NCBI GenBank assembly: GCA_038030265.1
Contig: CM075939.1
Span: 10,273,253-10,337,252 of the forward strand
Source: Corythucha ciliata
Taxonomy: Eukaryota; Arthropoda; Insecta; Hemiptera; Tingidae
DNA length: 64,000 nucleotides
Direction of reading: 5' to 3'
This document shows, piece after piece, positions 1 through 48,670 of the stretch (position 1 is the stretch's first letter; the number at the start of each line of letters is the position of its first letter). Position numbers and translations under genes: made by a program. Below the pieces are notes generated by a model that searched no databases, was not told the DNA's origin, and saw only the letters and a list, made by a program, of their open reading frames with translations.

Positions 1-608
1 CTAAGGCTAGCCTCTGAATACGCGCCCCAGTGTTGAAAAAAGGTAGTTTTTAAGCTTTGAAGTAGGTACTCGGACTTGATGGAAAAGTTTACGGCACACC
101 GAGTTTAAACATTGTTGAAAACGGCGCCGCGAAATGTTCCCCGGCTGAATTGAAATTGTTTTTATTCATCGGAAAGTGCGATGCGAGGAGAGGGGTGGGC
201 TATTACTTCAGTTACGTACCCGCATGAAACATCACCCCACTCAACCCCCCCCCCCCTAGAACAACGTCGTGATACTACGGGCCCGCAATCCATGACTGTA
301 CTTTTTTCCCCAGAGGGAGTGGGCACTTGCCTTCGAGTTTGAAGTCTCAAACTGTATTCACAGCGAATTTTAAATCGCTGCACTTGAAAGTTTTCAACCG
401 AAATTATTGGAGTGGGGGTGGGCACCATTTAGATTAGATCAACACTTTTACATTGGTGCCCGTTGCTTGGCTAGCTGTTGAATCTATCATGGTCAAGCAG
501 TGGAGAAAACAACACCGTTCAATGATACATTATTATGTATAGACAATATTCACAACCTCGCCTTTTTCAAAAAATGATGGCCTTTCTTTACGTTTTTCCC
601 ATACACAG
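1..608. other. Non-coding flank, probably intron of the Nup62-like gene
   Basis: I see no exon-like reading frame here on either strand. The stretch ends at a clear 3' splice site (T/C-rich tract then CAG at 606-608), so at least its right part should be intron of the gene whose last exon begins at 609. A C9 tract and short G/T-rich pieces are the only other visible structure. Confidence 0.5.
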
Positions 609-951
609 GCAGAATGAAATGGATGACCACGTTGAACGCATGTTCGAAAACGCAGCCCAGACCGTCAGAGAGGCCGAAGCCCAAATCAAAGACGTGTTGA
701 ACACAATTGAAAATGGAAGCGGTGGGTTAGAACCTATTGTGGAAGCAACCGCCCAATTACTGGACCCTTCGTTCTTGTCGATCCTTGACCAAGTACAGGC
801 CATAAACGCCGAGAACAACCGTGTCCTCGAGAAGTGTAATCACGAGTTTGAACGTCTCGTCGAAAGCGGTGCTCGACACCGCGAAGAAGTTAACTCCATT
901 TTGGCGAACACTCGCGCTCTCATGAAGGAGATCGAAGAAGACGATATTTAA
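609..951 (+). CDS. Last exon of a coiled-coil protein resembling nucleoporin Nup62 C-terminus (partial)
   Basis: The reading frame enters in phase 2 after a CAG acceptor and runs about 113 codons to TAA at 949-951. The product is almost entirely helical and acidic, with heptad-like spacing and no cysteine-rich or membrane segment. The order of features (MFENAAQTVREAEAQIKDVL, then a Gly-Ser-Gly break, then EPIVEATAQLLDPSFLSIL and a final helix) follows the last coiled coil of Nup62, which pairs with Nup54 and Nup58 in the central pore channel. That match is from memory and is modest, so the family is an inference. An internal ATG at 619 with good context could instead start a 110-residue protein if the upstream exon is untranslated. 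Upstream exons would lie left of the window. The stop is only 65 bp from the convergent stop of the next gene, so the 3' UTRs probably meet or overlap. Confidence 0.45.
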
Positions 952-1015: not shown

Positions 1016-4000
1016 TTAGAAAGGTTGTAGTCCTATTTCTTCGTCTGATTCTTTCACTACCGTCAAATTCGTAAAAATTTCAGCCGCAATCGGGTGCACA
1101 GCGATCATTTTGTCTAGATCCTCTTTCGTTAATGTCTCGCGTTGATATCCCACGACAAATCCCTGTATCATTTCACTCGCATTCGGGCACAACAGATGAA
1201 GACCGACTACCTGTTTAGGCGGCTCATTTAGGAACAATTTACCCCCACCCTACCGCCACAGATACTTACCTTGTGTCCAACGGCGGGTACTTTCGTACAG
1301 ATAACCTTAACGTAAGATCTGCAATCGAATCGATTCGAGAGACCGCTCTCTTCCGTCGTAAATATATTGTGAAACGTTTTAATTGCCCCGTACAGTTTTT
1401 TAGCCGCATCCTCAGTGACCCCGAGGAAGGCGTATTCAATTGGAGTAAGAACGCGAGTGGGAGCGCATCTATTGTGTTTGTTTGTTATTTTTTTAGTATT
1501 TCCGTCATAGGAGATTCATTTTTATTACTTGAAGGGCATCCGTGGTCCGGTTGAGAAACTGTAAAAGCGTTGCACTAGGGATTTCCCCGAGTGAGACGAC
1601 AATGAGGCTGAGGCGGGCCAACCGCGTCGATCGGCTACACTGCCGACGGCGAAAATATTTGGAACGGACGTTTGATACCGTTCGTTGACAGTGATTTTAC
1701 AGTTGGAACTCACCCTAAACTTGGGCAGGTTCAACAGGCCGAGGCCCTCTATGTTTGGCCATCGAGTTCCCACGTAAATCACCTGTGTCGAGGGTAGGCG
1801 TTGCGTGTATAGTGGTCGTGAGTGACTGTAACCCCCACACCCCATCCACGGCAGTTCTGGACTTCAACAATCACTGTACTCACCAAATCAAATTCCTCGA
1901 AGAAGTCGTCCGTCTCACAAAACGTTCTTTTACTTGTATCAGTAACCAGCACGTTTTCAGCGTTTGCATCACCTTGACCGGCATCATCCTTTCCCTCTTT
2001 GTCGGTAGTTGTCCCTTCAACTTTCTCCGTGTTATCCTTAGTCTCTTGGGTTTCATTTGTTTGTTCTTCTATTTTCTCATTAGTTTCTTCTTTGTTATTT
2101 CCTTCTGATACGTCTTTCCCCCCCGGGATTTCTTGCTTTTCCTTTGGTTTCTCTTGTTTTTCCTCAGATTTTTCTCGCTTTTTCTCTTGTTTTTCCTCGG
2201 ATTTTTCTCGTTTGTTTCCTGTTTTCTCTTCCTTTTCCTCAGGTTTGTCTCGCTTCCCTGGTTTCTCTTGCTTTTCCTCAGATTTTTCTCGCTTCCCCGG
2301 TTTCTCTTGCTTTTCCTCAGATTTTTCTCGCTTTCCTGGTTTCTCTTGCTTTTCCTCAGATTTTTCTCGCTTCCCCGGTTTCTCTTGCTTTTCCTTAGAT
2401 TTTTCCTGCGTTTCCTCAGGCTTCTCTTCATTTTCCTCGGTCGGTTTTTCGTCCTGCTTCTCTTCCCCTCCTTCACTGACCTCTCCGTCACCCTTCGTCT
2501 CCGGCTTAGCCCTTTTGTCTTCGGTGCTTTCTTTCGGTTGGACGTTAGTGATGACCCCTTCAACTTTTCTTACACCTCCTTCGGTGTTCTCGACTGGACA
2601 TAATTTTGTCAAGGCGATGTCATCCTCTAAGAAACGAATTCCTCGTGCTTCCATCACTGTTTTTATCTGTTTTTGTTTATGAATTTTAGTGTTTGCTAGC
2701 CCCCGCCCCCGTCATCACCACAGTTTATCAAACCTTTTCAGCGATGTCATTGTCTAGACCGTTTCCCAGCGGTTTATTTTTCGTTAGAATGGTCGTCTCA
2801 CTTCCAAGGCCATTCAAAGCTGTCGCAATCTCCAATGCGTCGTTTCCTTTGCCTATGACCAGCACTCTCTCGGGTTTACCTTCGACGTAGAAGAGCTCGT
2901 CCGGCGTTATTGACTCCTCAGCGCCTACAAATGTTCGAGTTGAGTGGGTTGATACACAGCTGAAGCTTTTTAAAGAGCTGCAACCAATTCAGAGGTCTCT
3001 CCATTATTGGGTGTGCTCGCCCCCTCACCTAAAACGTCCATAGTTATCGCCCTTGTCCCTGTTGCGATGACGAAAACTCGCCCGGTGATCCTATCCATTT
3101 TACCGTTGTCATGGTACAGCGTCATAGTGTTCTGGTCGACAAATTCTGGACGCCAATTTTCATACAGCGTCACTCCCATTTCTCGTTGTTCTTTCTTAAG
3201 TCGCCAACTGACTCTTTGAATGTAGTTCTTTATCGATCCCACTAGACCGTTCCATGTGTGCTCCATTTTGGGAGGTTTCTCAGTGTCAGCTGGGTCAGTG
3301 GTGGTTGTGTCATTTGATGGAGCCCAGCCGTAAAATTGGGCGTCCTTATTGATGGAAGGGAAGTAACAATTTTAAGGGATACTGTGTTGGTCAATTACTT
3401 TGAAATCGTCCTTGAACAGGGATGCTCTGTACAGCAATTTTCTTGGAAGTTCGCCTACATTAACGGCTCGCCCTCCCAAAACCCAACGGTTTCCATGTTG
3501 TGTAGGCTTGGAGTAGCTTATCAAAGCCACGTTTTTCCCTGTGAAATAATTTTTATTTAAATTGTTCTTGTTGAATTAAAAATCAAGAAGCATTCACCAA
3601 ATTTGGCTGCTTCCTTAGCAGCGGCAATCCCTGCACTCCCGCCTCCAATGACAATGAGGTCGAATTGCAGCTGTGACACTCCGATCCCTGCCCCACTTCC
3701 CTATTAAAACCGTCGTCAAGTTGGGTGAACTAAACCAACCGTTTAACAAATTGTTCAGCGTCCCCGTTGTAACGCTTTCCATTAATTCAGCCAACCCACC
3801 GACGTGGACACCGTTGATAAAAATATACGGCACTACTGTTGATGACGTCCTCGTAGTCAGCTCCTCCTGCATCACGTGACCCTCGTTTTCTCGATCCAGC
3901 ATTACCATGTGGTATTCGATCTAAGAAAACAAAAACTGTGACTGACACCAACACCGCCGTCCCCTAACCTTTAACGCGCAATCTTTACGTCATTATTGTC

Positions 4001-4198
4001 CAAAATTTTCTGAACTTCCATGCAGTACGGGCAGTAAGCTTTGCCAAAAACCACCACTTTGTTTTCCTTGATTAGCGTTTGCACTTTGTCTTTGTTTGTC
4101 TCGAACTCTGGAGATTTTTTTGTATTTGAACGTGATTTCGCGGTCTCGTCCGGTTTCCTGTTGGGACAGGTTGGGGGACAGAATTTTTTCGACTCCAT
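1016..4198 (-). CDS. Glutaredoxin-thioredoxin reductase fusion (TGR-like) lacking the reductase redox centres, copy A
   Basis: Ten exons: complement(join(1016..1210, 1270..1468, 1529..1782, 1884..2666, 2734..2924, 3029..3344, 3399..3538, 3598..3687, 3740..3920, 3989..4198)); all junctions are GT-AG and phases close to an 852-residue protein. Residues about 36-135 form a glutaredoxin with an intact dithiol site C56-P-Y-C59, cis-proline and VGG glutathione motif. Residues about 140-852 are a thioredoxin-reductase fold: FAD motif IGGGSAG, ATG motif, NADPH Rossmann motif VIGKGNDALE (about 335-344), and interface domain ending at HPIAAE (H827, E832). In active enzymes the isoalloxazine-facing motif is CVNVGC; here it is A185-V-N-V-G-E190, so both cysteines are gone. 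NIFAVGS (S685) replaces the usual Gly-Asp that holds FAD, and the chain stops at EIGLQPF without a Cys-Cys or Cys-Sec tail. Exon 7 carries a long Lys/Glu-rich insert (about 420-600). An AATAAA lies just after the stop (about 1001-1006). Cell compartment is unknown; no signal peptide is seen. Confidence 0.9.
2140..2420 (-). repeat. In-frame 39-bp tandem repeat encoding Lys/Glu-rich 13-mers
   Basis: Inside exon 7 of copy A, a 39-bp unit coding KSEEKQEKPGKRE is repeated about four times nearly perfectly and then decays on both sides (KPEEKEEKTGNKRE, KSEEKQEKKRE). It sits just after the beta strand read as GIRFLEDDIALTK in the NADPH domain, where the paralogue has only a short Gly/Ser loop. The opposite strand gives Ser/Phe-rich open frames that are shadows. 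Confidence 0.9.
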
Positions 4199-4347
4199 TT
4201 TTGGGTGCTTGAAATGTCTCTACGAACGAATTTTTAACTGAAAATTATGTCGTTGGCTAATTTACAAAGGCATGTGTTTACAATGTTGTTCATTTTTTTT
4301 CTAAATTAAATTTTGCACAAAATTTATCGTAAACAGAGACGTCGGAA
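4199..4347. promoter_or_regulatory. Short bidirectional promoter of the divergent TGR-like pair
   Basis: Only 149 bp separate the two start codons. The stretch is AT-rich and contains T-runs (about 4289-4297) but no clear TATA box placed for either gene. Both genes must use it as promoter plus 5' leader unless there are upstream non-coding exons, which I cannot see. Shared control of the two paralogues is an inference from the geometry. Confidence 0.55.
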
Positions 4348-6871
4348 ATGGAAGACTTAAATCAGGGTGTGTGGGAGCCCTCTCAGACGAGCGCTATACT
4401 TTCAGAGCAGGACGTCGATCCGCTTGAAGAGGCCTTGGCCTCTAATGACGTTGTTTTGTTTTGTAAGGGCGACTGTTCAGATACTTACGAAGCGCTTCAA
4501 AATTTGAACGTTCGCAAGGTGAGAGTCTCTTGCGTTCGAAGGCGTAGGGGATGTGTATATTAGTATTTTTAAGGGGATGACAAGTGATACGATGACAGGG
4601 TACTCAGAGTCTGAGTGTTGATGGGGAGGGGTGAGCTTGTAGACGTTCGTTGTGACCGATGTTAAATTGGTTGTGGGTGGAAGTCAAGGTGACGGGGAAG
4701 GTGCTGTGCGGAAGTCAAGGTGACGGGGAAGGTGCTGTGAAGTAATTTGTCGAGCGTCGTTGACTTGAAAAATCTAACCGTTAGATTTCATACCACCTGG
4801 TTGATTTGGACAAAGATCCCGATGGACCAAGAATTTCCAGCGCTCTTCGCCATAAATTGGGGCCCGGCGCCATGTCGCCTCACTGTTTTATCGGCCGTCT
4901 GTATGTCGGAGGAATAGAGACACTGATCGAAATGGTTTCTTCGGGACTTCTCGAGGATGCCATCAGAGGTTTTTCTCGAGCTATTTTTAGATTTTCACGA
5001 AATCGACCGTTAAAAAAACAAACAAACAGGAACCGATACGTCGAACTACGAATATGACGTGATCATCATCGGAGGAGGCTCCGCTGGGCTTAGCGCGGCT
5101 AAAGAAGCGTCGAAACACGGTACTGCGTCCATTTTAATTTTTTTTTTTTGTAGTTTGCGCTTTCACGTTGTGGGTGATATTCAGAAAAAAAAGTTGCTCT
5201 CGCGGATTTAACGCGACCCACTCTGCGTGGCAACACTTGGGGCCTGGGAGGTCGAGCCAACAACTCAGGGGCTCTCCCTAGGAAGTTTTTGTATAGAGCT
5301 GCACTACTCCGCGAGGACTGTTCGGTAATTTAAAAAACAAAAAAAAACTGACGATGCGACGGTGAGTTTTCACGTTATTACACCCTTTTCCATTCGTCAA
5401 ATTCCCAGGATGCTTCGTACTATGGTTGGGTCGTCGAACAGTCGTCCAATCGGACGAAAGAATCTCCGCACAATTGGGACTTGATGACGGCCGCCGTTCG
5501 TTCCTACGTTGAAACCATCAGTTGGCAACATAGAAAAGAGTTGCGCGACGCCAACGTCACCTTCTACGAGGGTTGGGCCACTCTGATCGACGCTCACACC
5601 GTTGACGTTGTCGATCGCGACGGTCACAAGTTGACGCTCACGGCAAAGTCGTTCGTCATCGCCGCTGGGAGCAAAACGACGCCTCTAAATATTCCAGGTG
5701 AGTTGAAACGCCAAAATTAAGCTTAACATTATTTTAAACGGAAGGATTTTAGGTGAAGAACTTATTTCAACTCCGGACGATATTTTCGCAGCTGAAGGTT
5801 ACCCCGAAAAAGTGTTGATCCTAGGGAGCGGCTTCGACAGTATTGAACTCGCTTCATGTTTTTCCGGTCTTGGCTACTCAACAAGTGTCGCTTTGAGCAA
5901 TTCACCCGAGGATTGTGACTTTGACAAGGATATGGTGGAGAAGATTTTTGAAGTTTTGCGCTCACGAGAAATACAATTTTTAAGCGGCGGGCTTAAATTG
6001 ACTCAAGCGTCAGGTGGTGGAGATGAGTCGTCGGGTGGTAAAGTGACGGTCGAAGGAGTCTACACCGACGAAGGTGACTCTTCAAAATTCACAGACACTT
6101 ATAATTTGGTGAGTTAACTTTGTTCGGTTTTTAAACGGCCGCTTATACCCCTCCTCCTGAAGGTTATTAACGCGATGGACAGTCGTGCAAACACAGATCA
6201 TCTCGGCTTGCACCGCGTCTCAGAGTTGAAGATTAATCCGAAAAACTGCAAGATCAAAGTCAATGAATGGGATCAGACGTCAGTACCAAATATTTTCGCT
6301 GTTGGAAGCGTTGCAGATCACGCGGGGTTTCACTCGTCGTCTGTTTCATCAGTTGCGGGCAAATTGCTCGCTAGACGGATGTTTGCTGAGATGCTCGACA
6401 GACTAAACTATTCGTCAGTAAATTTTTTAACAAATTGTTGACGAAAAAAACATAATTTGGGCGCGTGCATGCAGAATGGTTCCCATTAGGGTTCTCAGTC
6501 CGATTGAATACGCGTTTATTGGTCATTCTGAAGAGTCCGCGAATCGGGTTTACTGTCAATCCATAGAGGTGTTTCACGACGTTTTCACCACTGTCGAAGG
6601 TGCCCTCTCGAATCGTTTCGACTCCAAAGGATACGTCAAAGTGATTTGTTACAAGGAGCCCAAGGGTATTCTACCGGTCGTTGGCATTCACATACAGTGC
6701 CTCCACGCTTCTGAAGTCCTTCAAGGGTTCGTGTTCGAATTTCAAGCCGGTCGTTTGACGAAGCGACACCTCGACGAGCTCATCACTATCAAACCGTCCT
6801 CCGCCGAAATTTTTAACAAGCTCACCATCACCAAAGACTCCGGACTTGAAATCGGACTCGGAGCATTCTAA
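4348..6871 (+). CDS. Glutaredoxin-thioredoxin reductase fusion (TGR-like) lacking all redox centres, copy B
   Basis: Eight exons: join(4348..4518, 4785..4968, 5030..5119, 5185..5324, 5409..5697, 5753..6108, 6163..6413, 6475..6871), giving 625 residues. Exons 3 and 4 are exactly as long as in copy A (90 and 140 bp) and most introns sit at the same places; copy A has two extra. The glutaredoxin region (to about 118) has C43-S-D-T46 where CPYC belongs, so the resolving cysteine is lost. The FAD motif IIGGGSAG is good, but GGTCVNVGCIPKK of active enzymes reads GGR-A173-N-N-S-G-A178-LPRK: both redox cysteines are replaced. The NADPH motif is GSGFDSIELAS, the FAD motif GD is G458-S459, the proton-relay His of the HPxxxE motif is K600 (KPSSAE; E605 kept), and the end is EIGLGAF without a Cys/Sec tail. 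The exon 7 donor (GTCAGT) is weak but required by phase. Frames are fully open, so this is not a decayed pseudogene. The enzyme activity of the family is very unlikely; a binding or regulatory role is inferred. Confidence 0.9.
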
Positions 6872-6966: not shown

Positions 6967-9774
6967 TTAAGACAACGTAGCCAAAAAAGCCGACGCCGAA
7001 GTCACTGACGGGAGACAAGGACCGAACGCCTCCAAAAACAGCGGTTCCTCTTCGACCGCCTCTTTGAAATCCTCAAAGGAGAGGCGGCCGTCTTTGTCGC
7101 GATCCAATTTTCGGAGAACGAGATCGACGAGTTCTTTGACGCCTTCTTCGGGGTCTTCGTCTCCCGGCTGTTTCACCAGACTGTTCCTGCGTTGGATCAA
7201 CAAATAAAAAACAGGTTAGTGCCCCTTTATCGTTGTTTCGTTTTTTTTTTTTTTTTTCAATTTTATGGATTTTATTTGGCTTTTGCCCCTCCTCTCACCC
7301 CTCTCTTTCCCAACTAATTGGAAAGCTCGCAACATCAGGTCGTAAACAAGTAGTGAAAAGCTATAGTTAACACGTGTAACGGATTCTCCTTAAGTAGCTA
7401 CGGGGATCGTCTCTATTTTTCAAAAAAACCGCGCAACCGTTAATTTTCCCAGTTAACTTTCTCCCTTGTCTAGCCTTCCGCAACTAGGGCATTTGCTGGT
7501 AAAACTTTCATTTGTTCTAGGAGATGAAGAGGGGAGGGGGTTGAGGGAGATCTCAGATTTTTCGACTATATTTACGTTCACTTCTGTGTTTGCATCATGC
7601 TTTCCAGTGCAGTGGCTCATTTATTAGGTCCATGAACTATAAAATTACGTGCTGCACGAAACTGCAATTTTTTGTGCAATTTGTCTATTTTATATTGTGC
7701 AACAGCATTATTAGTCCTCGGGATATGTAATTTTTGAAAGTTGTTCCGTCGGGGTTTTCTCCGTGTGTACGTCGAGGAGTAAGAAACCACCCATCAATAA
7801 ACAGAGTGGGGCGGGGTTATCTAAGGCGTTTTAATCGTCTTTAAAAACCTTTACATTCCCGTTCAAAAACAGTACTAATTATTGTGGTTCTCACCTATCA
7901 CTACCAATTACCCCCCCCCCCTCCGCTTTTCACCTGAGAAGCGTGAATATTTCGTCGCGAACGATAAAACCGTCGACGTTCAAATCGTAGACGGCAAAGG
8001 TGAAGGCTGTACGTTGAGCGAGACTGCCGCGTAGGAAAACGCTCAGTCCCTGTAGGAATTCGTCGAGTTTGACGAGGCCGTCACTGCCCGAATCGAACAC
8101 GCAGAAAATTCGGTCCATGAGCAGATCTTCAGCGCACACGCCGAACGTGTTGTGAAGTAGATCGCGGAAAACGGTGCGTTCGATGCCCTGTTTAGCCTGG
8201 AACAGATCTCGGAGGAATTATTATTATTATTTTTTTTTTTTTCGTTGTTGACGACCCTCTTTACGCTCCACTGTTGAACAGAAGACCGACCACCAGGGGG
8301 GCTCGAAGGGAGGGTCAAGGTCACTGAGGGGCGACGGGGTAACACACAATTTTTTCAACCCCAAACAAACAAAAGAACTGTTAAGAGTGTGCACAACGTC
8401 CCTGCACGCTTTTAAAGTGTCATTAGTCTTTGTGTTAAAGAAAAATGATCTCCTCCTTTTCGTCTCCCTGAATGACACTGCACACAAGATGCATTGGGGG
8501 GGATTATCACCTTGTAATTGTTCAAAGGCGCCGTTGTAACAGCCGGGTAATTGCCATTTTGTAGGGGAGTAGATTGTCCCACTCCGACCAGCTTTTCATA
8601 TATGAGTGTTAACGCTTCTGTTTCTTGCCTAAAATAAACAAAAACAGAAGGTTTAGAAGCGTCATTCTGGGTGCATAGATGGGACTTGTATAGTTAATCG
8701 GTGGATTTTTTTGTAAAGACCGTATAGACTTGTATACATAGATTCTAAGCCTGACATTCTGGGGTGGGTATCGGTTTTGTCTCTGACCCTTTGATGCTAT
8801 AACTTCAAGGACTTCATGTGGTTGAGGGTGTAAAAGGAGAGGAGAGGGCACGGAAAACTTTCAATTTCCCCTTGACTCGCGTTCACGTTCAGCTCGCATC
8901 ATTTCAGTATAAATAAACATAATAAAACTGCCTCTTGTCATCATCATTCGTGTACTGTTTGATGCCAAATTGTGCCACAAAATGATGTGAAAGTGGATAG
9001 GAAAACAACTCCTCTGGCGTGATTACAGTTAGCATGTTCCGCATCACGCAATTTGTGGCGGTGAGAAGTGGGCAGGGGAGTTGTCCACATTAATTTACGA
9101 AAATGAAAACTCACCCCCCCCTCTCATCTTGTAGTTTTCCTCATATTTTTCTATAAATACTTTCGGCATGAAAATGCAAAATGCTCTATTGAAGCGTGTG
9201 ACTTTTTGGATACTTCCACCTAAATTAAATTACATGGGAATGGGATAGCTAGCGATTTTTGCGATAATATCGCCCAGGTTGGTCAGCTTCTTCAAGGAGC
9301 GCATTGTGTTTTGATTTTGCAGTATGTAAGGGAATCGCGTGCAATAACTTGCATGATTGCTCCCAAGAGGATGGTTGGGGCGGGGGGGGGGGCAAAAGTT
9401 TTCTTTTCTCGGGGTTTTGTTTCTTAGGAATTTCCGCCCATGATCAGATATTTATTGAATTGTCTGGGAAGCTTTGTTTGTTGAATAATGCACGTTATTC
9501 TTCCAAACGAGTGCTAAATGATGGTGGGAGTGCTAAATAGAAAATTATTACTTTAATAGTGTTCGCGCTCACAGTGTGTTAATTGTGACTTAAGCTGCCA
9601 CATTGGCTGGCTTTACGTCCAGTTCTAACTAAGGGGCACTTCTGCAAAGGTATTGCGCTTTTTTTTGCATCATTGTACGGATTATGTGACTTTATCCCCT
9701 CCTCCTTCACCACCAAACTAAAATTTTGGCCATTTTTACCTGGAGAAGTGCGTCGGTTTTCTGACCGCCGCCAT
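6967..9774 (-). CDS. CLXN: Calaxin / EF-hand calcium-binding domain protein 1
   Basis: Exons complement(join(6967..7186, 7934..8196, 8511..8628, 9740..9774)) give 211 residues with the start at 9774 (good Kozak context, MAAVRKPTHFS). Calaxin is the neuronal-calcium-sensor-type protein of outer dynein arms that sets ciliary waveform. Three EF-hand loops are visible: D86-S-G-S-D-G (weak), Y121-D-L-N-V-D-G with E133, and D167-R-D-K-D-G with E177/D178. Family stretches such as DLLMDRIF, GLSVFLRGSL, LVKQPGDEDPEEG and LEAFGPCLP are unmistakable. The end of exon 2 is uncertain: the strong donor at 8511/8510 adds about 24 unconserved residues (VGQSTPLQNG...NNYK), while donors after KL or KLVG, also in phase, would give a protein closer to the family and about 187 residues long. 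The reading frame stays open and Gly-rich far upstream of the ATG. A poly(A) signal lies at about 6921-6926, and the stop is 95 bp from the stop of copy B. Confidence 0.88.
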
Positions 9775-14663: not shown

Positions 14664-16810
14664 TCATAACATTTTCCCCCTTTTAAATTTGGAACAACCG
14701 GTCAAAAATGTTTCTCGTTGTCTTTTAGGTATGTTCCTAGGATGTTTTGGTATCGTAGGATTCATCCCCTCAACGGAGGCTTCTGCGTCGATTGTGGTCG
14801 CTGGCTCCTCGTTCTCTACATCGGGCGTTTCTTCCTGATGCATATCCCTATCAGGACCCTGCCAAATCTGTTCTTCATAACTCGCACGGCTGTTTTGATG
14901 GGTTGTTTTCCTCTGGGTTAGGGCTTGAGAAGAGTTGATTTCTCTTGGCTGCCTACTCCAGCAGGGAAACAGAAGATTCAGTTCCATCTTTTCGTCTCAC
15001 GATGGCTTAATGAGGATTTGCCTTGATCCATTTTACAAACATCGGATCACGGTTGCTGACGTTACATCTGGACAAGCGTAGGCAAATGGGAACAGGGAAA
15101 ACTCGTCAATAACTGGTACCTACCTAAACATTCCTAGACCGAGACGGAAGAGGTACTTTGAAATCGAGGCTGAGTCTTTCAAAAGAAGCGGTTGTCTTAA
15201 TGAGAGTCCCGTGATCCTTGAAATATCTCGGCTTGACTTCAGCTCACACGGAACATCGCGACGTAACTTTTCGAACCTCTTCAATCTCAGCCAATGAAAC
15301 ATCCTTGTCTCACCTGGGTGGCAAAGAGCTTGATGGAATTCGAATAAATCAGTTGAGCTCATGGAGCTGCAAATCCGTGACAAGGTGTCAGCTCCAACGT
15401 TTTCAAAACCCGTCTGGTATATGATATCGAATGAGAACGGCGAGAAACGGCGATCTGTCACCAACTGGAAATGCTTTCCCAAAAGCAGAGCTCCCCACTT
15501 CTTCAAAGACTCTACGATCGCGGCGGTTTCTTTTTCGATAGATGAGTGCCCTTTTTCGGTTTTCAAAAGCGATTTTGAAAAGAAGGATATGGGGCATCCT
15601 TCTTGACTTAGGGTAGCTACTAGTGCCACATCCGACGCGTGGCACTCGTACGTGGCAACTCATCCTATCCTCTTCTGTTTCAACTACTAAGGGCGAGGCA
15701 TGACTTATATTTGTGACTACTGAGCCCGCAATCTCTTTTATTATCGCTTTGAAGCTAACAATAGCTTCATCGTTTAATGGAAACGAGTGGCTGTCCGAAA
15801 GTTTCTTAATTTTGTCGGAAAATCGGGGGATTAATTTTGAATAATGTGCGAAGAAACCAAGGGCTCGCTTCAAAGTCTTCGGAGAGTCGTGAGGTACTGG
15901 CATATTAACCACACACCGCTGTGGTCAATATGCACCGGTCTGGCCGCATTGAATTGTGAGACACCAAATGTCCTAAGAGAGTGACCGTTGTGAGGAGAAA
16001 TTTGCTTTTCTTTCTTTTTAATTCAATTGCCAATTTGTCTAGTTCCCACAACAGCTGGTTTATATTTTTATCGTGGTCAGATTTGCTACTTCCGCAGACT
16101 GTTAAATCGTCAAGATAGGCGAATACTCCGTCCAGTTGATTTTCTAAGTACGCTGGAAGCAAGCGACGCCATTGGTCACTCACATCGGAATTCAATTGGC
16201 TAATGGTCTACAATTAGGCGAGAGATTCGCGAATAGGCGAGGAAGATCTATTTTTTTCTTATTTCAGACGAAGATAAGCAGATAGAGAGGGCTGGCATTT
16301 TTCCTCCGAAAGTCATCTCTATTTTGCTGGGCTCTTTTAAAATGTCATGACCTAAGAGGACCTCAGAGCACAATTCCTCGTGGACAATGAGTTTGCAATT
16401 AGCGTAACGGTGTCCTCCCACGTCCAATTTGACTATTACGTAGCCCTGATCATCGGCCCACAAAGACGTCGACGCCATCGAAATTCGGCCATGTTGAGGT
16501 TTAATGACAATCCCAAGTTTTATGACAAATTCAAGGCTGGCAAAGCTGCCTGAATTCCCTGTATCAATCAAACACTTCGCTAGTTAACCGTTATAACAGT
16601 AAATTATAACGGTAACAGCTCGGAATAATTGATTTAGAAAATCGTTGTTCGTAGATGCCACGAGTGGCGATGCCGATAGACCTCTCGGCGATGTTCCAAA
16701 TTCTGCTTCCTACATTCTTTTGCGTAGTGCCCTTTGATTTTACACGAACGGCACTCGACATCTTTTGCGAGACAAACCGATCGTGGATGTAAATCGAAGC
16801 CACAAAAGTA
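14664..16810 (-). pseudogene. Ty3/gypsy-like retrotransposon pol remnant with internal deletions
   Basis: Read from 16810 downward there is, in order, a zinc knuckle (about 16700-16810, CRSCKIKGHYAKEC), a retropepsin (16248-16571; IDTGNSGSF and LLGHDIL), the C-terminal palm of reverse transcriptase (15905-16195; FAYLDDLT catalytic box), the connection region (about 15700-15912), RNase H (about 15400-15660), the HHCC zinc-binding part of integrase and the very start of its core (about 15060-15360), and then a C-terminal tail (14664-14987). Frames are broken by shifts and stops. Only about 50 bp separate protease from the middle of RT, and the rest of the integrase core is missing, so there are at least two internal deletions. 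Long terminal repeats were not recognised. This is an old, inactive copy. Confidence 0.85.
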
Positions 16811-31564: not shown

Positions 31565-34070
31565 ATGCAGAATTTTCCGATCAAACATTGCGACCAGTGC
31601 GAAAAAACGTTCTCCACGCAAAGCGGTCTTAAAGATCATCTACTGAAAGTGCACCCAAAAGAAAGATACTATTGTTTCCACTGTAAACACGTAACAAATA
31701 GGAAATTCGATTTGGCGAAGCACATGAAAGTTCATGATCAAGTCCAGCGAAACCGCTCAAAAGTTATGCCGTCGTGTGTGATGTGTTCAATGCGGGTTCA
31801 AGACCGCAAATCCATGCTGCGTCACTATGAGACTGGTCATGACGTTTGTCTGGCTCCAAAAAAAATGGAATTCGACAAATTTTGAAGAATTTTTGACGTG
31901 GAAATCAAACCTAGAAAAATCGGAGCAAATCAGATATGTAGCTAGAGCCGGGCCTCTTAAAACTGCGAACCAAAAAATTCGAACTTACAGATGTTTTCGA
32001 GACGGGTTTTACACCAGCGAAGGAAAAGGTAAGCGGAGTCTAAAAGTTCGAGGATCTTGTAAAATTAATGGGATCTGTCCGTTCTCAATAACACTGTCTG
32101 AGGACATTCACTCGGGTTTGGTAAAAGTTCGCTACATTGCTGCTCACGCTGCCCATGGGACAGATGTTGGTCGGTTAAATTTGACCAAGGACGAAAAAAA
32201 TTCAATAGCGCGAAAAATTGCTGCCAAAGTCCCCTTTGACGTTATTTTAGACGATTTCTGGGAATTGGGGTTAGGGAGTGAAGTGGAACGTTAAATTTGG
32301 TAACTCGAAAGGATTTATGGAACATTTAACGGGATTATAATCTAAACACTGATGGGACGATCCACGAAAATGATAGGGTAAGCGTTGAGTCTTGGGTCAA
32401 ACAAATGAACGGCGAATCCAACATCATCAGGTTTTTCAAACAACAAGGCAGCAGTTCAGCTCACTCACATAATCTGAAAGAAGAAGACTTCGTTTTAATT
32501 TTTTGTACTGACACACAACTTGAGATGTTAGCCAAACATGCGCATAAATGTATTTGCTTCGACTCAACTCACGGGACGAACCAGTACAACTTCGACCTCA
32601 CCACTCTACTTGTGCTAAATGATGATCATCAAGGATTTCCCGTTCCCTTCTTGATATCAAATCGCTCTGACCACGAAATAATATCTATTTTTGCCGAAAC
32701 CCTGAAAAAAATTGTAGGGGACGTTCAAACGAACGCCATGATGACAGATATGGCTGAAAATTTCTATAATGGCTGGTGTTCCGTTACGACCGAACCAAAA
32801 CACCGTCTACATTGCAGCTGGCATGTGGACAAGGCGTGGAGGAGCAATTTATCGAAAGTTTCGTCGTTAGAAAAATGACTTGTGTATAAGATGGTCAAAA
32901 CTTTGCAGTATGAGTTGGACGAAACCTCTTTCCATTCTCTGCTAGAAGCTGCTTTGGAGAATATGCTCAACGACCCCGATACCCAAAAATTTGGTTCGTA
33001 TTTCAAGGCCGAATTTGGGAAGCAACCCAAGTCATGGGCTTATTGCTTCAGAAATGGGTCGGCATTAATACAAACATGGCTCTCGAGTCCCTTCACAAAG
33101 TGATCAAACACATTTACTTCACGGGCTCGTACGCCTATCAAGAGTCAAGTTGTTCAACATTGTAATCGACAAATTGAGAGGGAAACTCACGCCGAAAATG
33201 GTGGCGACGAGGAAGAGGCACGGGCGTTGACGATGACATCCTCCGTCATAGAAACAGATGCAGGGTTCAGCGTTTCATCAGAGTCCGGCATCGACATTTA
33301 CGAAGTACGAAAAGAAAGTACAGACGAGAAAACTTGTGACTGTGGAATCAAATGCATTGACTGTGCGATCTGTATCCACCAATATTCTTGCACCTGCATA
33401 GATTCGGTTGTGAGCTACAACATTTGCAAACATATTCATAAAATAAGAATGTACCTCAAATCACAGTAGCCGAATTCTGAAGGATCCACTAATGGAATAA
33501 ATACAACCACCGAACCAATGGACCTCGTTGTGGACGAAGACACGCCACTCCTGCCGCTATCTTTATTCAAAGACCTGGGGGCCTATTCTCTAACTCCGAA
33601 GCAATAGCTTTTTCGCAGTCATATGTTTATTTCATTAAGTTTCTTCAAACAAATGAATGAAATAGACACATGGCTGGCGAAAAAAATATTGCTTGTTGTT
33701 AGAGAATAGGGCCCCTGAAAAATAACGAACGGCACGGCGTCATCATAAAGATTTTAATGAGCAAAAAGAAGAGTTGATAGACAATTTTAAAAAACTTGTG
33801 GAAGCCGCGACGAATGAGACTCATCTGAACATCCTGAAGAAAATGATACGTCCAGCCCGCTCAATGATGGAAGCTTCTTCCTCAGGCGTCAGATTCAACG
33901 TTCCAGATTCCGCCAAAAAGATAAATTCTTGTGCCAACGTTTCCCCTCAGAAAACATTCCATTCTACTAAAAAAGCAAGGGTTAACGAGAGAAATGAAAG
34001 AAAAAAACCAACGAAAGAAGAAGCAAATTTGATTGCTGCTCAGTTATTGTTAGAACATGAAAATGTGTAA
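31565..34070 (+). pseudogene. MULE transposase pseudogene: C2H2 fingers + DDE transposase + SWIM finger
   Basis: Read along the plus strand there are three C2H2-like fingers (31565-31860; CDQCEKTFSTQSGLKDHLLKVH is the clearest), a FLYWCH-like region (about 31960-32160), then the MULE DDE core: catalytic Asp in FDSTHGTN (about 32570), Asp in MTDMAEN (about 32745) and Glu in NTNMALESLHK (about 33070). A SWIM zinc finger follows (33350-33440; CICIHQYSCTC...ICKHIHK), then a basic tail (33774-34070). The gene is broken: a shift near 31880, a shift and stops at 32292-32320, an in-frame TGA at 32876-32878, another shift near 33055, and a MITE at 33577-33715 splits the tail. It cannot make a transposase now, but the catalytic triad is still readable, so the decay is recent compared with other elements here. 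Confidence 0.9.
33577..33715. mobile_element. MITE, GGGCCTATTCTCTAAC family, copy 1
   Basis: Inverted ends GGGGCCTATTCTCTAAC / GTTAGAGAATAGGGCCCC around a 139-bp body. A second copy, in opposite orientation, is at 45923-46054. Target duplication not clear. Confidence 0.75.

Positions 34071-39042: not shown

Positions 39043-48670
<9,628 letters not shown>

What the first reader, a model, noticed from the sequence alone, without database searches (positions are those of the whole stretch)
1016..6871. Head-to-head pair of glutaredoxin-thioredoxin reductase fusions without the CxxxxC redox centre
Both genes are full-length, intron-containing and open, yet the FAD-facing motif CVNVGC is AVNVGE in copy A (185-190) and ANNSGA in copy B (173-178). 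Every active thioredoxin, glutathione or TGR reductase needs that pair to pass electrons from FADH2. Two independent sets of replacements in a divergent duplicate with shared introns, rather than random stops, suggest the proteins were kept for another job (partner binding, NADPH or flavin sensing, dominant regulation of a true TGR). I know of no described family of paired TGR pseudoenzymes.
Basis: partly seen in the sequence, partly recalled or inferred. Interest (0 to 1): 0.88.

Follow-up and report, generated by a model that had tools for sequence, protein, structure and literature searches.

The report
Paired dead thioredoxin-glutathione reductase genes
Two neighbouring genes, probably of an arthropod, encode complete look-alikes of a key antioxidant enzyme that have lost its electron-carrying parts yet seem to have been kept by selection, most likely for a structural or binding job, while versions with the working parts sit elsewhere in the same genome.

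Summary
Copy A (minus, 4198-1016, 10 exons, 852 aa) and copy B (plus, 4348-6871, 8 exons, 625 aa) are intact, head to head, 149 bp between ATGs. All 7 introns of B are shared with A. AVNVGE (185-190) and ANNSGA (173-178) replace CVNVGC. It is mostly one loss, not two: of 25 near-invariant positions lost by both, 16 carry the same replacement. Both copies then stayed constrained (pN/pS 0.49-0.61, no stops, silent change saturated), most in the dimer domain. The same genome has two TGRs with CVNVGC and GC-TGA-G ends (C4, C6) and an SCCS thioredoxin reductase (C2). Best reading: a non-catalytic dimeric scaffold pair, probably A:B, with a usable glutaredoxin head on A. Precedents exist (yeast Irc15p; LpdA; STH); the listings I saw show no TGR case. 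No transcript data.

The parts
1016..4198 (-). Copy A, pseudo-TGR gene: exons 4198-3989, 3920-3740, 3687-3598, 3538-3399, 3344-3029, 2924-2734, 2666-1884, 1782-1529, 1468-1270, 1210-1016; 852 aa
   Evidence: splice model, no transcripts; Pfam Glutaredoxin 50.0 bits (cut-off 22.9), Pyr_redox_2 111 bits, Pyr_redox_dim 64 bits
4348..6871 (+). Copy B, pseudo-TGR gene: exons 4348-4518, 4785-4968, 5030-5119, 5185-5324, 5409-5697, 5753-6108, 6163-6413, 6475-6871; 625 aa
   Evidence: Pyr_redox_2 109 bits, Pyr_redox_dim 46.5 bits, Glutaredoxin 17.0 bits, below its cut-off 22.9
3450..3467 (-). AVNVGE in copy A (residues 185-190) where TGRs have CVNVGC
5256..5273 (+). ANNSGA in copy B (residues 173-178) where TGRs have CVNVGC
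4022..4033 (-). CPYC, retained dithiol glutaredoxin centre of copy A (residues 56-59)
4474..4485 (+). CSDT, degenerate glutaredoxin centre of copy B (residues 43-46)
1968..2543 (-). 192-residue K/E-rich insert in copy A (residues 418-609) in the NADPH domain; contains 39-bp (13-residue) tandem repeats at 2145-2438
   Evidence: period 39, 7.5 copies; 54 Glu, 44 Lys of 192
4199..4347 (.). 149-bp stretch between the two ATGs, a candidate shared bidirectional promoter
   Evidence: function inferred from distance only
1016..1039 (-). C-terminus of A, EIGLQPF-TAA, in place of GC(Sec)G; an AATAAA begins 8 nt after the stop
6848..6871 (+). C-terminus of B, EIGLGAF-TAA, in place of GC(Sec)G

Best explanation
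A and B are a divergently transcribed, ancient paralogous pair of pseudo-TGRs. A single ancestor lost the TrxR chemistry (first CxxxxC cysteine, GD Asp, C-terminal Cys-Sec tail), then duplicated. Since then both have been kept by purifying selection as folded dimer-forming proteins (supported: intact frames, constraint strongest in the dimerisation domain, losses heaviest in the NADPH domain and at active-site positions). The job is most likely non-catalytic: a dimeric, probably A:B heterodimeric, binding scaffold made from a shared promoter, in which A offers an intact CPYC glutaredoxin head recharged by ordinary glutathione and a long charged K/E loop for partner binding, and B is a wholly dead partner (inferred: dimer formation, heterodimer, co-expression, Grx activity, partners).
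For: Intact 10- and 8-exon models with 16 GT-AG introns. NG86 over 615 codons: pS 0.735 (dS 2.94, saturated), pN 0.404, bootstrap pN/pS 0.49-0.61; change at codon positions 1/2/3 is 0.45/0.35/0.65; identity 51% in the dimer domain, 29% in Grx. Of 65 columns invariant in 36 homologues, A keeps 41 and B 40; the same homologues scored leave-one-out keep at least 90% (lowest 65 of 72, Cimex P0002). Both copies keep 13 of 17 in the dimer domain but 3 of 14 in the NADPH domain (Fisher p 0.004, uncorrected). 16 of 25 shared losses identical (shuffle mean 3.0, maximum 9 in 10,000). Lost in both: C175, C180, R337, R342, D450, L458, P460, C613; E320 and K184 kept. A keeps CPYC and His588-Glu593. Searching the whole genome with B (22 of 22 candidates scored) finds A/B, the C4 and C6 TGRs, the C2 TrxR and two bacterial-type ORFs, no third pseudo-TGR. 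Precedent: Irc15p, an Lpd1 paralogue without the cysteine pair, microtubule-associated, dimeric.
Against: No transcript or protein evidence. dS is saturated and only two sequences bear on selection, so the pN/pS ratio is rough and does not exclude recent relaxation in one copy. The FAD pyrophosphate loop GGGSAG and the glycines of the NAD domain survive in both (GKGNDA, GSGFDS), so a flavin or NADH function is not excluded. R342 is not kept by the C6 TGR or Cimex P0002 either. Nothing tests dimerisation; the contrast of the dimer domain with all the rest is weak (13 of 17 against 22 of 48, p 0.046), and in the first FAD part A is a little closer to the C4 TGR (0.43) than to B (0.40). Shared replacements could also come from gene conversion.
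Confidence: 0.5

Rival explanations
1. Regulatory decoys: A and/or B dimerise with the TGRs on C4 and C6 and poison or tune them, because each active site of the family needs residues of both subunits (recalled).
For: TGRs with CVNVGC and GC-TGA-G ends are present in the genome; the dimer domain is the best kept part; A still has the His-Glu pair that would complete a partner's site.
Against: In the dimer domain A and B are closer to each other (0.53) than to C4 (0.44, 0.44) or C6 (0.39, 0.40), with 13 residues there shared by A and B and absent from C4, C6, P0001, P0003 and P0005, which favours A:B over mixed dimers. Both lack the tail that would serve a partner.
Confidence: 0.2
2. A cysteine-free flavoenzyme of changed specificity (NAD(P)H oxidase, quinone reductase or transhydrogenase), as in Irc15p, LpdA or STH.
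For: Rossmann motifs GGGSAG and GxGxx(A/S) and the Lys184-Glu320 pair persist in both; Irc15p without cysteines still holds FAD and is reduced by NADH or NADPH.
Against: D450 of the FAD site, L458 and P460 are lost in both, the ribose acid D158 in A, R337 and R342 in both; only 3 of 14 invariant NADPH-domain positions are kept by both.
Confidence: 0.15
3. Duplicates in slow decay, no longer under selection.
For: Most catalytic residues are gone; no expression evidence here.
Against: Zero in-frame stops in 852 and 625 codons at saturated synonymous divergence, 16 of 16 GT-AG introns, pN/pS 0.49-0.61.
Confidence: 0.08
4. Only copy A matters: a glutathione-dependent glutaredoxin that keeps a dead TrxR body as a dimeriser; B is a hanger-on.
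For: A's Grx passes the Pfam cut-off with CPYC; B's does not.
Against: The Grx domain is the least alike part between the copies (29%), and B keeps as many invariant TrxR positions as A (40 and 41 of 65).
Confidence: 0.07

Closest known systems
Thioredoxin-glutathione reductase (TGR; TXNRD3; flatworm TGR)
   Same: Same domain order Grx + FAD + NADPH + dimerisation; best solved relatives are TGRs and TrxRs
   Different: No CxxxxC, no C-terminal Cys-Sec, R337 and R342 changed, GD changed to GS; B also without the Grx CxxC and the catalytic His
Irc15p of Saccharomyces cerevisiae (PMC6296175)
   Same: Paralogue of a flavoprotein disulfide reductase (Lpd1) that lost both redox cysteines and stays dimeric; described as neofunctionalised
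   Different: From LPD, single gene, binds FAD and is reduced by NAD(P)H; A/B have also lost cofactor contacts and form a head-to-head pair
Soluble transhydrogenase SthA (CxxxxT) and M. tuberculosis LpdA
   Same: Disulfide-reductase relatives without the full cysteine pair
   Different: Bacterial, keep one cysteine and act as enzymes (PMC9460512 passages; PMC6296175 introduction)
Cimex lectularius TGR-like protein (P0002)
   Same: Groups with A/B in the tree (100/97); shares 24 rare residues with A, next best 10
   Different: Keeps CANVGC, GD, His-Glu and a terminal Cys; looks catalytic, though it keeps fewest invariants of the 36 (65 of 72)

Membership tests
TGR (as an enzyme) | Grx domain fused to a TrxR module | tested here: met
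   A: Pfam Glutaredoxin, Pyr_redox_2 and Pyr_redox_dim over cut-off; B: Grx detectable but under cut-off, 17.0 against 22.9
TGR (as an enzyme) | CxxxxC next to FAD | tested here: not met
   AVNVGE / ANNSGA
TGR (as an enzyme) | C-terminal GC(Sec)G or Cys equivalent | tested here: not met
   ...GLQPF-TAA and ...GLGAF-TAA; the C4 and C6 TGRs of the same genome end GC-TGA-G-stop
TGR (as an enzyme) | NADPH 2'-phosphate arginines (R337, R342 in mouse TXNRD3) | tested here: not met
   R337 is K in A and N in B; R342 is N in A and C in B; the role is recalled. Caution: R342 is G in the C6 TGR and K in P0002
TGR (as an enzyme) | Catalytic His-Glu pair | tested here: inconclusive
   A keeps both; B has Lys for His
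Cysteine-free disulfide-reductase paralogue of the Irc15p kind | Paralogue of a family member with intact cysteines in the same genome, both redox cysteines lost, domains kept | tested here: met
   Relatives with CVNVGC on C4, C6, C2; fold domains over cut-off
Cysteine-free disulfide-reductase paralogue of the Irc15p kind | Binds FAD and is reduced by NAD(P)H | not testable with these tools
   Needs purified protein; several contact residues lost
Soluble transhydrogenase (STH) | CxxxxT motif and Tyr in place of the catalytic His | tested here: not met
   AxxxxE / AxxxxA; His in A, Lys in B; the STH motifs

The most novel reading that the evidence does not exclude
A:B is an obligate heterodimer built wholly from a dead TGR, the first such pseudo-TGR complex: the shared ancestor shed FAD/NADPH/dithiol/selenium chemistry, and the two halves now act as a protein-binding or structural unit (for example in cilia or sperm, where mouse TGR and the neighbouring gene calaxin act) or as a dedicated inhibitor of the genome's own TGRs.
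Probability: 0.3. Interest if true: 0.72.

Novelty: new variant of a known kind. Interest (0 to 1): 0.5.

Why it matters
TGR is a central redox hub and a drug target in flatworms (PMC2873472, abstract passage). A pair that lost its electron-carrying parts yet stayed under selection would show that the TGR dimer has a use apart from redox transfer, and the presence of two intact-looking TGRs and a TrxR in the same genome makes the question directly testable (mixed dimers, activity, expression).

Tried and rejected
Sequencing or assembly error: rejected; each cysteine change needs two or three base changes and many other catalytic positions changed with it. Pseudogenes: unlikely. Independent loss in each copy: rejected for most positions. 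A/B as a recent copy of the C4 TGR: unlikely; 0 of 9 modelled C4 introns fall on an A/B column, though the last one of C4 lies three columns from A's last (811 and 814, both phase 0, an intron that B lacks). A/B as an intronless retrocopy that gained all its introns: weakened; the intron before DAQFYGW (column 414, phase 0) is shared with the C2 TrxR, and another phase-1 intron lies five columns off (337, 342); only these two C2 introns were compared. A third pseudo copy: none found in the window or genome (exon-wise search). SECIS: no Rfam hit in the window at gathering cut-offs, nor in L003 up to E 1 although L003 has an in-frame TGA before G-stop, so absence of a hit says little. Close homologues of A/B in 5.8 billion proteins: best identity 41%, over part of the query (each scored about 8000 candidates). 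Tree caveat: A, B and Cimex P0002 are long branches; holding A, B, C4 and C6 together is rejected only weakly (AU p 0.026). In the earlier 45-row tree the ciliate protein P0086 also joined A/B/P0002 (96/92); I left it out. Structure prediction was not tried: the spliced proteins are not given letter for letter by contiguous window DNA, which is the tool's stated condition.
Full report
What was checked. Splice models built from the window give copy A (minus strand, 4198 to 1016, ten exons, 852 aa) and copy B (plus strand, 4348 to 6871, eight exons, 625 aa); all 16 introns are GT-AG and each frame ends in TAA. All seven introns of B fall in the same alignment column and phase as introns of A; A has two more. 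The start codons are 149 bp apart. The closest named relatives are TGRs and TrxRs: Lygus hesperus, Cimex lectularius and mouse TXNRD3 among others, at 31-38% identity to B for the TGR/TrxR hits that head the list and up to 41% over part of A; the best solved relatives are TGRs and TrxRs.

How unusual the motif loss is. Of 194 homologous proteins retrieved by the three searches, 187 keep CxxxxC by pattern match, including all 120 listed. The seven exceptions came from the copy A search: two with CVNTGT or CINTGT, two with SIWTGT, three without such a motif. The searches scored about 8000 candidates each and searches list 120 of 465 and 120 of 459 hits, so rarer cases can be missed.

The loss goes beyond the two cysteines. 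I aligned A (without its insert) and B with 36 proteins that I picked from the 183 then retrieved (some of the 36 are near-duplicates, such as P0003 and P0004). Of 91 near-invariant columns A keeps 55 and B 56; both keep 45 and both lose 25. In mouse TXNRD3 numbering both lose T174, C175, C180, R337, R342, G408, D450, L458, P460 and C613. From recalled knowledge of the family these belong to the FAD-side Thr and dithiol, the NADPH 2'-phosphate site, the FAD ribityl Asp, the flavin-contacting segment and the C-terminal Cys beside Sec. R342 is a weak marker: it is Gly in the C6 TGR and Lys in Cimex P0002. K184, E320 and E593 are kept in both; H588 is kept in A and is Lys in B; the Grx centre is CPYC in A and CSDT in B. 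Restricting to 65 strictly invariant columns, A keeps 41 and B 40, while each homologue scored leave-one-out keeps at least 90%.

One loss or two. Of the 25 columns lost by both copies, 16 have the same replacement; shuffling gives a mean of 3.0 and a maximum of 9 in 10,000. So the common ancestor most likely already lacked the first cysteine, the GD aspartate and the C-terminal cysteine. Gene conversion could also make the copies alike and is not excluded.

Selection. Over 615 aligned codons pS is 0.735 (dS 2.94, saturated) and pN 0.404; the pN/pS bootstrap range is 0.49-0.61. Identity is 29% in Grx, 40% in the first FAD part, 37% in the NADPH part, 49% in the second FAD part and 51% in the dimer domain. 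Both copies keep 13 of 17 invariant dimer-domain columns but 3 of 14 in the NADPH domain (Fisher p 0.004, uncorrected); dimer domain against all the rest is 13 of 17 against 22 of 48, p 0.046. If the ancestor had already lost its chemistry, the A-B differences arose later and the constraint acted on the pseudoenzyme form. This rests on two sequences and saturated silent sites.

The genome. The window is part of C3 of a 401-Mb, 57-contig assembly. It holds an intronless TGR on C6, 602 aa, with CPFC, CVNVGC, GD, His-Glu and an end reading IEGC-TGA-G-stop; a multi-exon TGR on C4 with CVNVGC and GD, whose first Grx exon (CPFC) and last exon (GGC-TGA-G-stop) were found by pattern and not joined to the model; and on C2 a TrxR with CVNVGC ending SCCS, a tail that many insect TrxRs show. 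That these are active enzymes is inferred from sequence. A search with B (22 of 22 candidates scored) matched A/B, these three and two bacterial-type ORFs on C1, and no further pseudo-TGR. The PF07992 family search scored 10 of 59 candidates and did not list A/B, so that search alone is no census. The animal is probably an arthropod, perhaps a hexapod (inferred from the SCCS tail and from the tree, where the C2 TrxR groups with a thrips protein, 98/93); its name is not given.

Origin. In a 35-row tree A and B are sisters (100/100), join Cimex P0002 (100/97), and with Lygus P0001 and the C4 and C6 TGRs make a six-row set (99/98). Holding A, B, C4 and C6 as one clade is rejected only weakly (AU p 0.026) and long branches are involved; in a 45-row tree without C4 and C6 a ciliate protein, P0086, also joined. 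A alone and B alone each fall beside P0002 in quick trees, but B's most identical row there is P0007. A shares 24 rare residues with P0002 against 10 for the next protein; B shares 11, no more than with two others. None of the nine modelled C4 introns falls on an A/B column, while the A/B intron before DAQFYGW coincides with one in the C2 TrxR. So A/B look like an old intron-bearing TGR lineage, not a fresh copy of the TGRs on C4 or C6.

Mechanism. Supported: disulfide reduction by the known TGR route cannot work without the cysteine pair; frames and domains are kept; the dimer part is kept best. Inferred: dimers, most likely A:B, since the pair is divergent with a short shared upstream stretch and is closer to itself (0.53) than to the C4 and C6 TGRs (0.39-0.44) in the dimer domain; against this, in the first FAD part A is slightly closer to C4 (0.43) than to B (0.40), and in the dimer domain A is almost as close to P0002 (0.49). 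Also inferred: A's Grx head can work with glutathione, and the 192-residue K/E insert is a flexible binding loop. The convergent neighbour of B matches calaxin/EFCAB1, an axonemal protein, and mouse TXNRD3 is abundant in elongating spermatids (PMC9218152, abstract start in the listing): a hint towards cilia or sperm, no more.

Against what is known. The kind exists: Irc15p, an Lpd1 paralogue without both cysteines, dimeric, FAD-bearing and microtubule-associated (PMC6296175; I read part 1 of 7 and passages); LpdA and STH (same introduction; PMC9460512 passages). For TGR, my searches showed nothing that fits (listings only, with no hits, the others part of what matched), and a paper on flatworm TGR variants speaks of variants of single genes in the passages seen (PMC2873472). 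Hence a new variant of a known kind.

Noticed in passing
window 6973-8217, minus: Gene convergent with copy B looks like calaxin/EFCAB1, the axonemal calcium sensor: the piece 7930-8217 has Calaxin as best solved match (E 1.3e-24); the piece 6973-7179 by recalled likeness only.
   Followed up: partly
L003 (G000 C6:42194354-42198370): Intronless TGR with an in-frame TGA tail, apparently a retrogene, in a genome that also has a multi-exon one on C4.
   Followed up: partly
L001, L002, L004 (G000 C1 near 54.9 Mb, 732 kb and 84 kb): Intronless bacterial-looking lipoamide dehydrogenases and a low-Mr thioredoxin reductase inside a chromosome-sized contig (by eye): symbiont sequence, transfer or misassembly.
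   Followed up: no
window 1968-2543: 39-bp in-frame tandem repeats coding K/E-rich 13-mers inside an otherwise recognisable enzyme domain of copy A.
   Followed up: partly
window 526-951, plus: Open frame coding about 110 aa (MDDHVERMFENAAQ...), only a weak Pfam hit; its stop lies 64 bp from that of copy A.
   Followed up: no
window 41746-42018, minus: ORF resembling the C-terminal part of YAP/Yorkie (ADSGLGL ... PHTPDDFLS); resemblance recalled, not tested.
   Followed up: no
window 15120-16571 minus and 31782-32878 plus: Pieces resembling a Gypsy-type retroelement (recalled resemblance) and a MULE / ZSWIM-like transposase (one search tested 32330-32878 only).
   Followed up: no
P0148, P0155, P0156: Flavoproteins of 474 aa, known here only from metagenome or archive sources, that lack CxxxxC and also read GGR...LLYRA at that site; probably chance likeness to A.
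   Followed up: no
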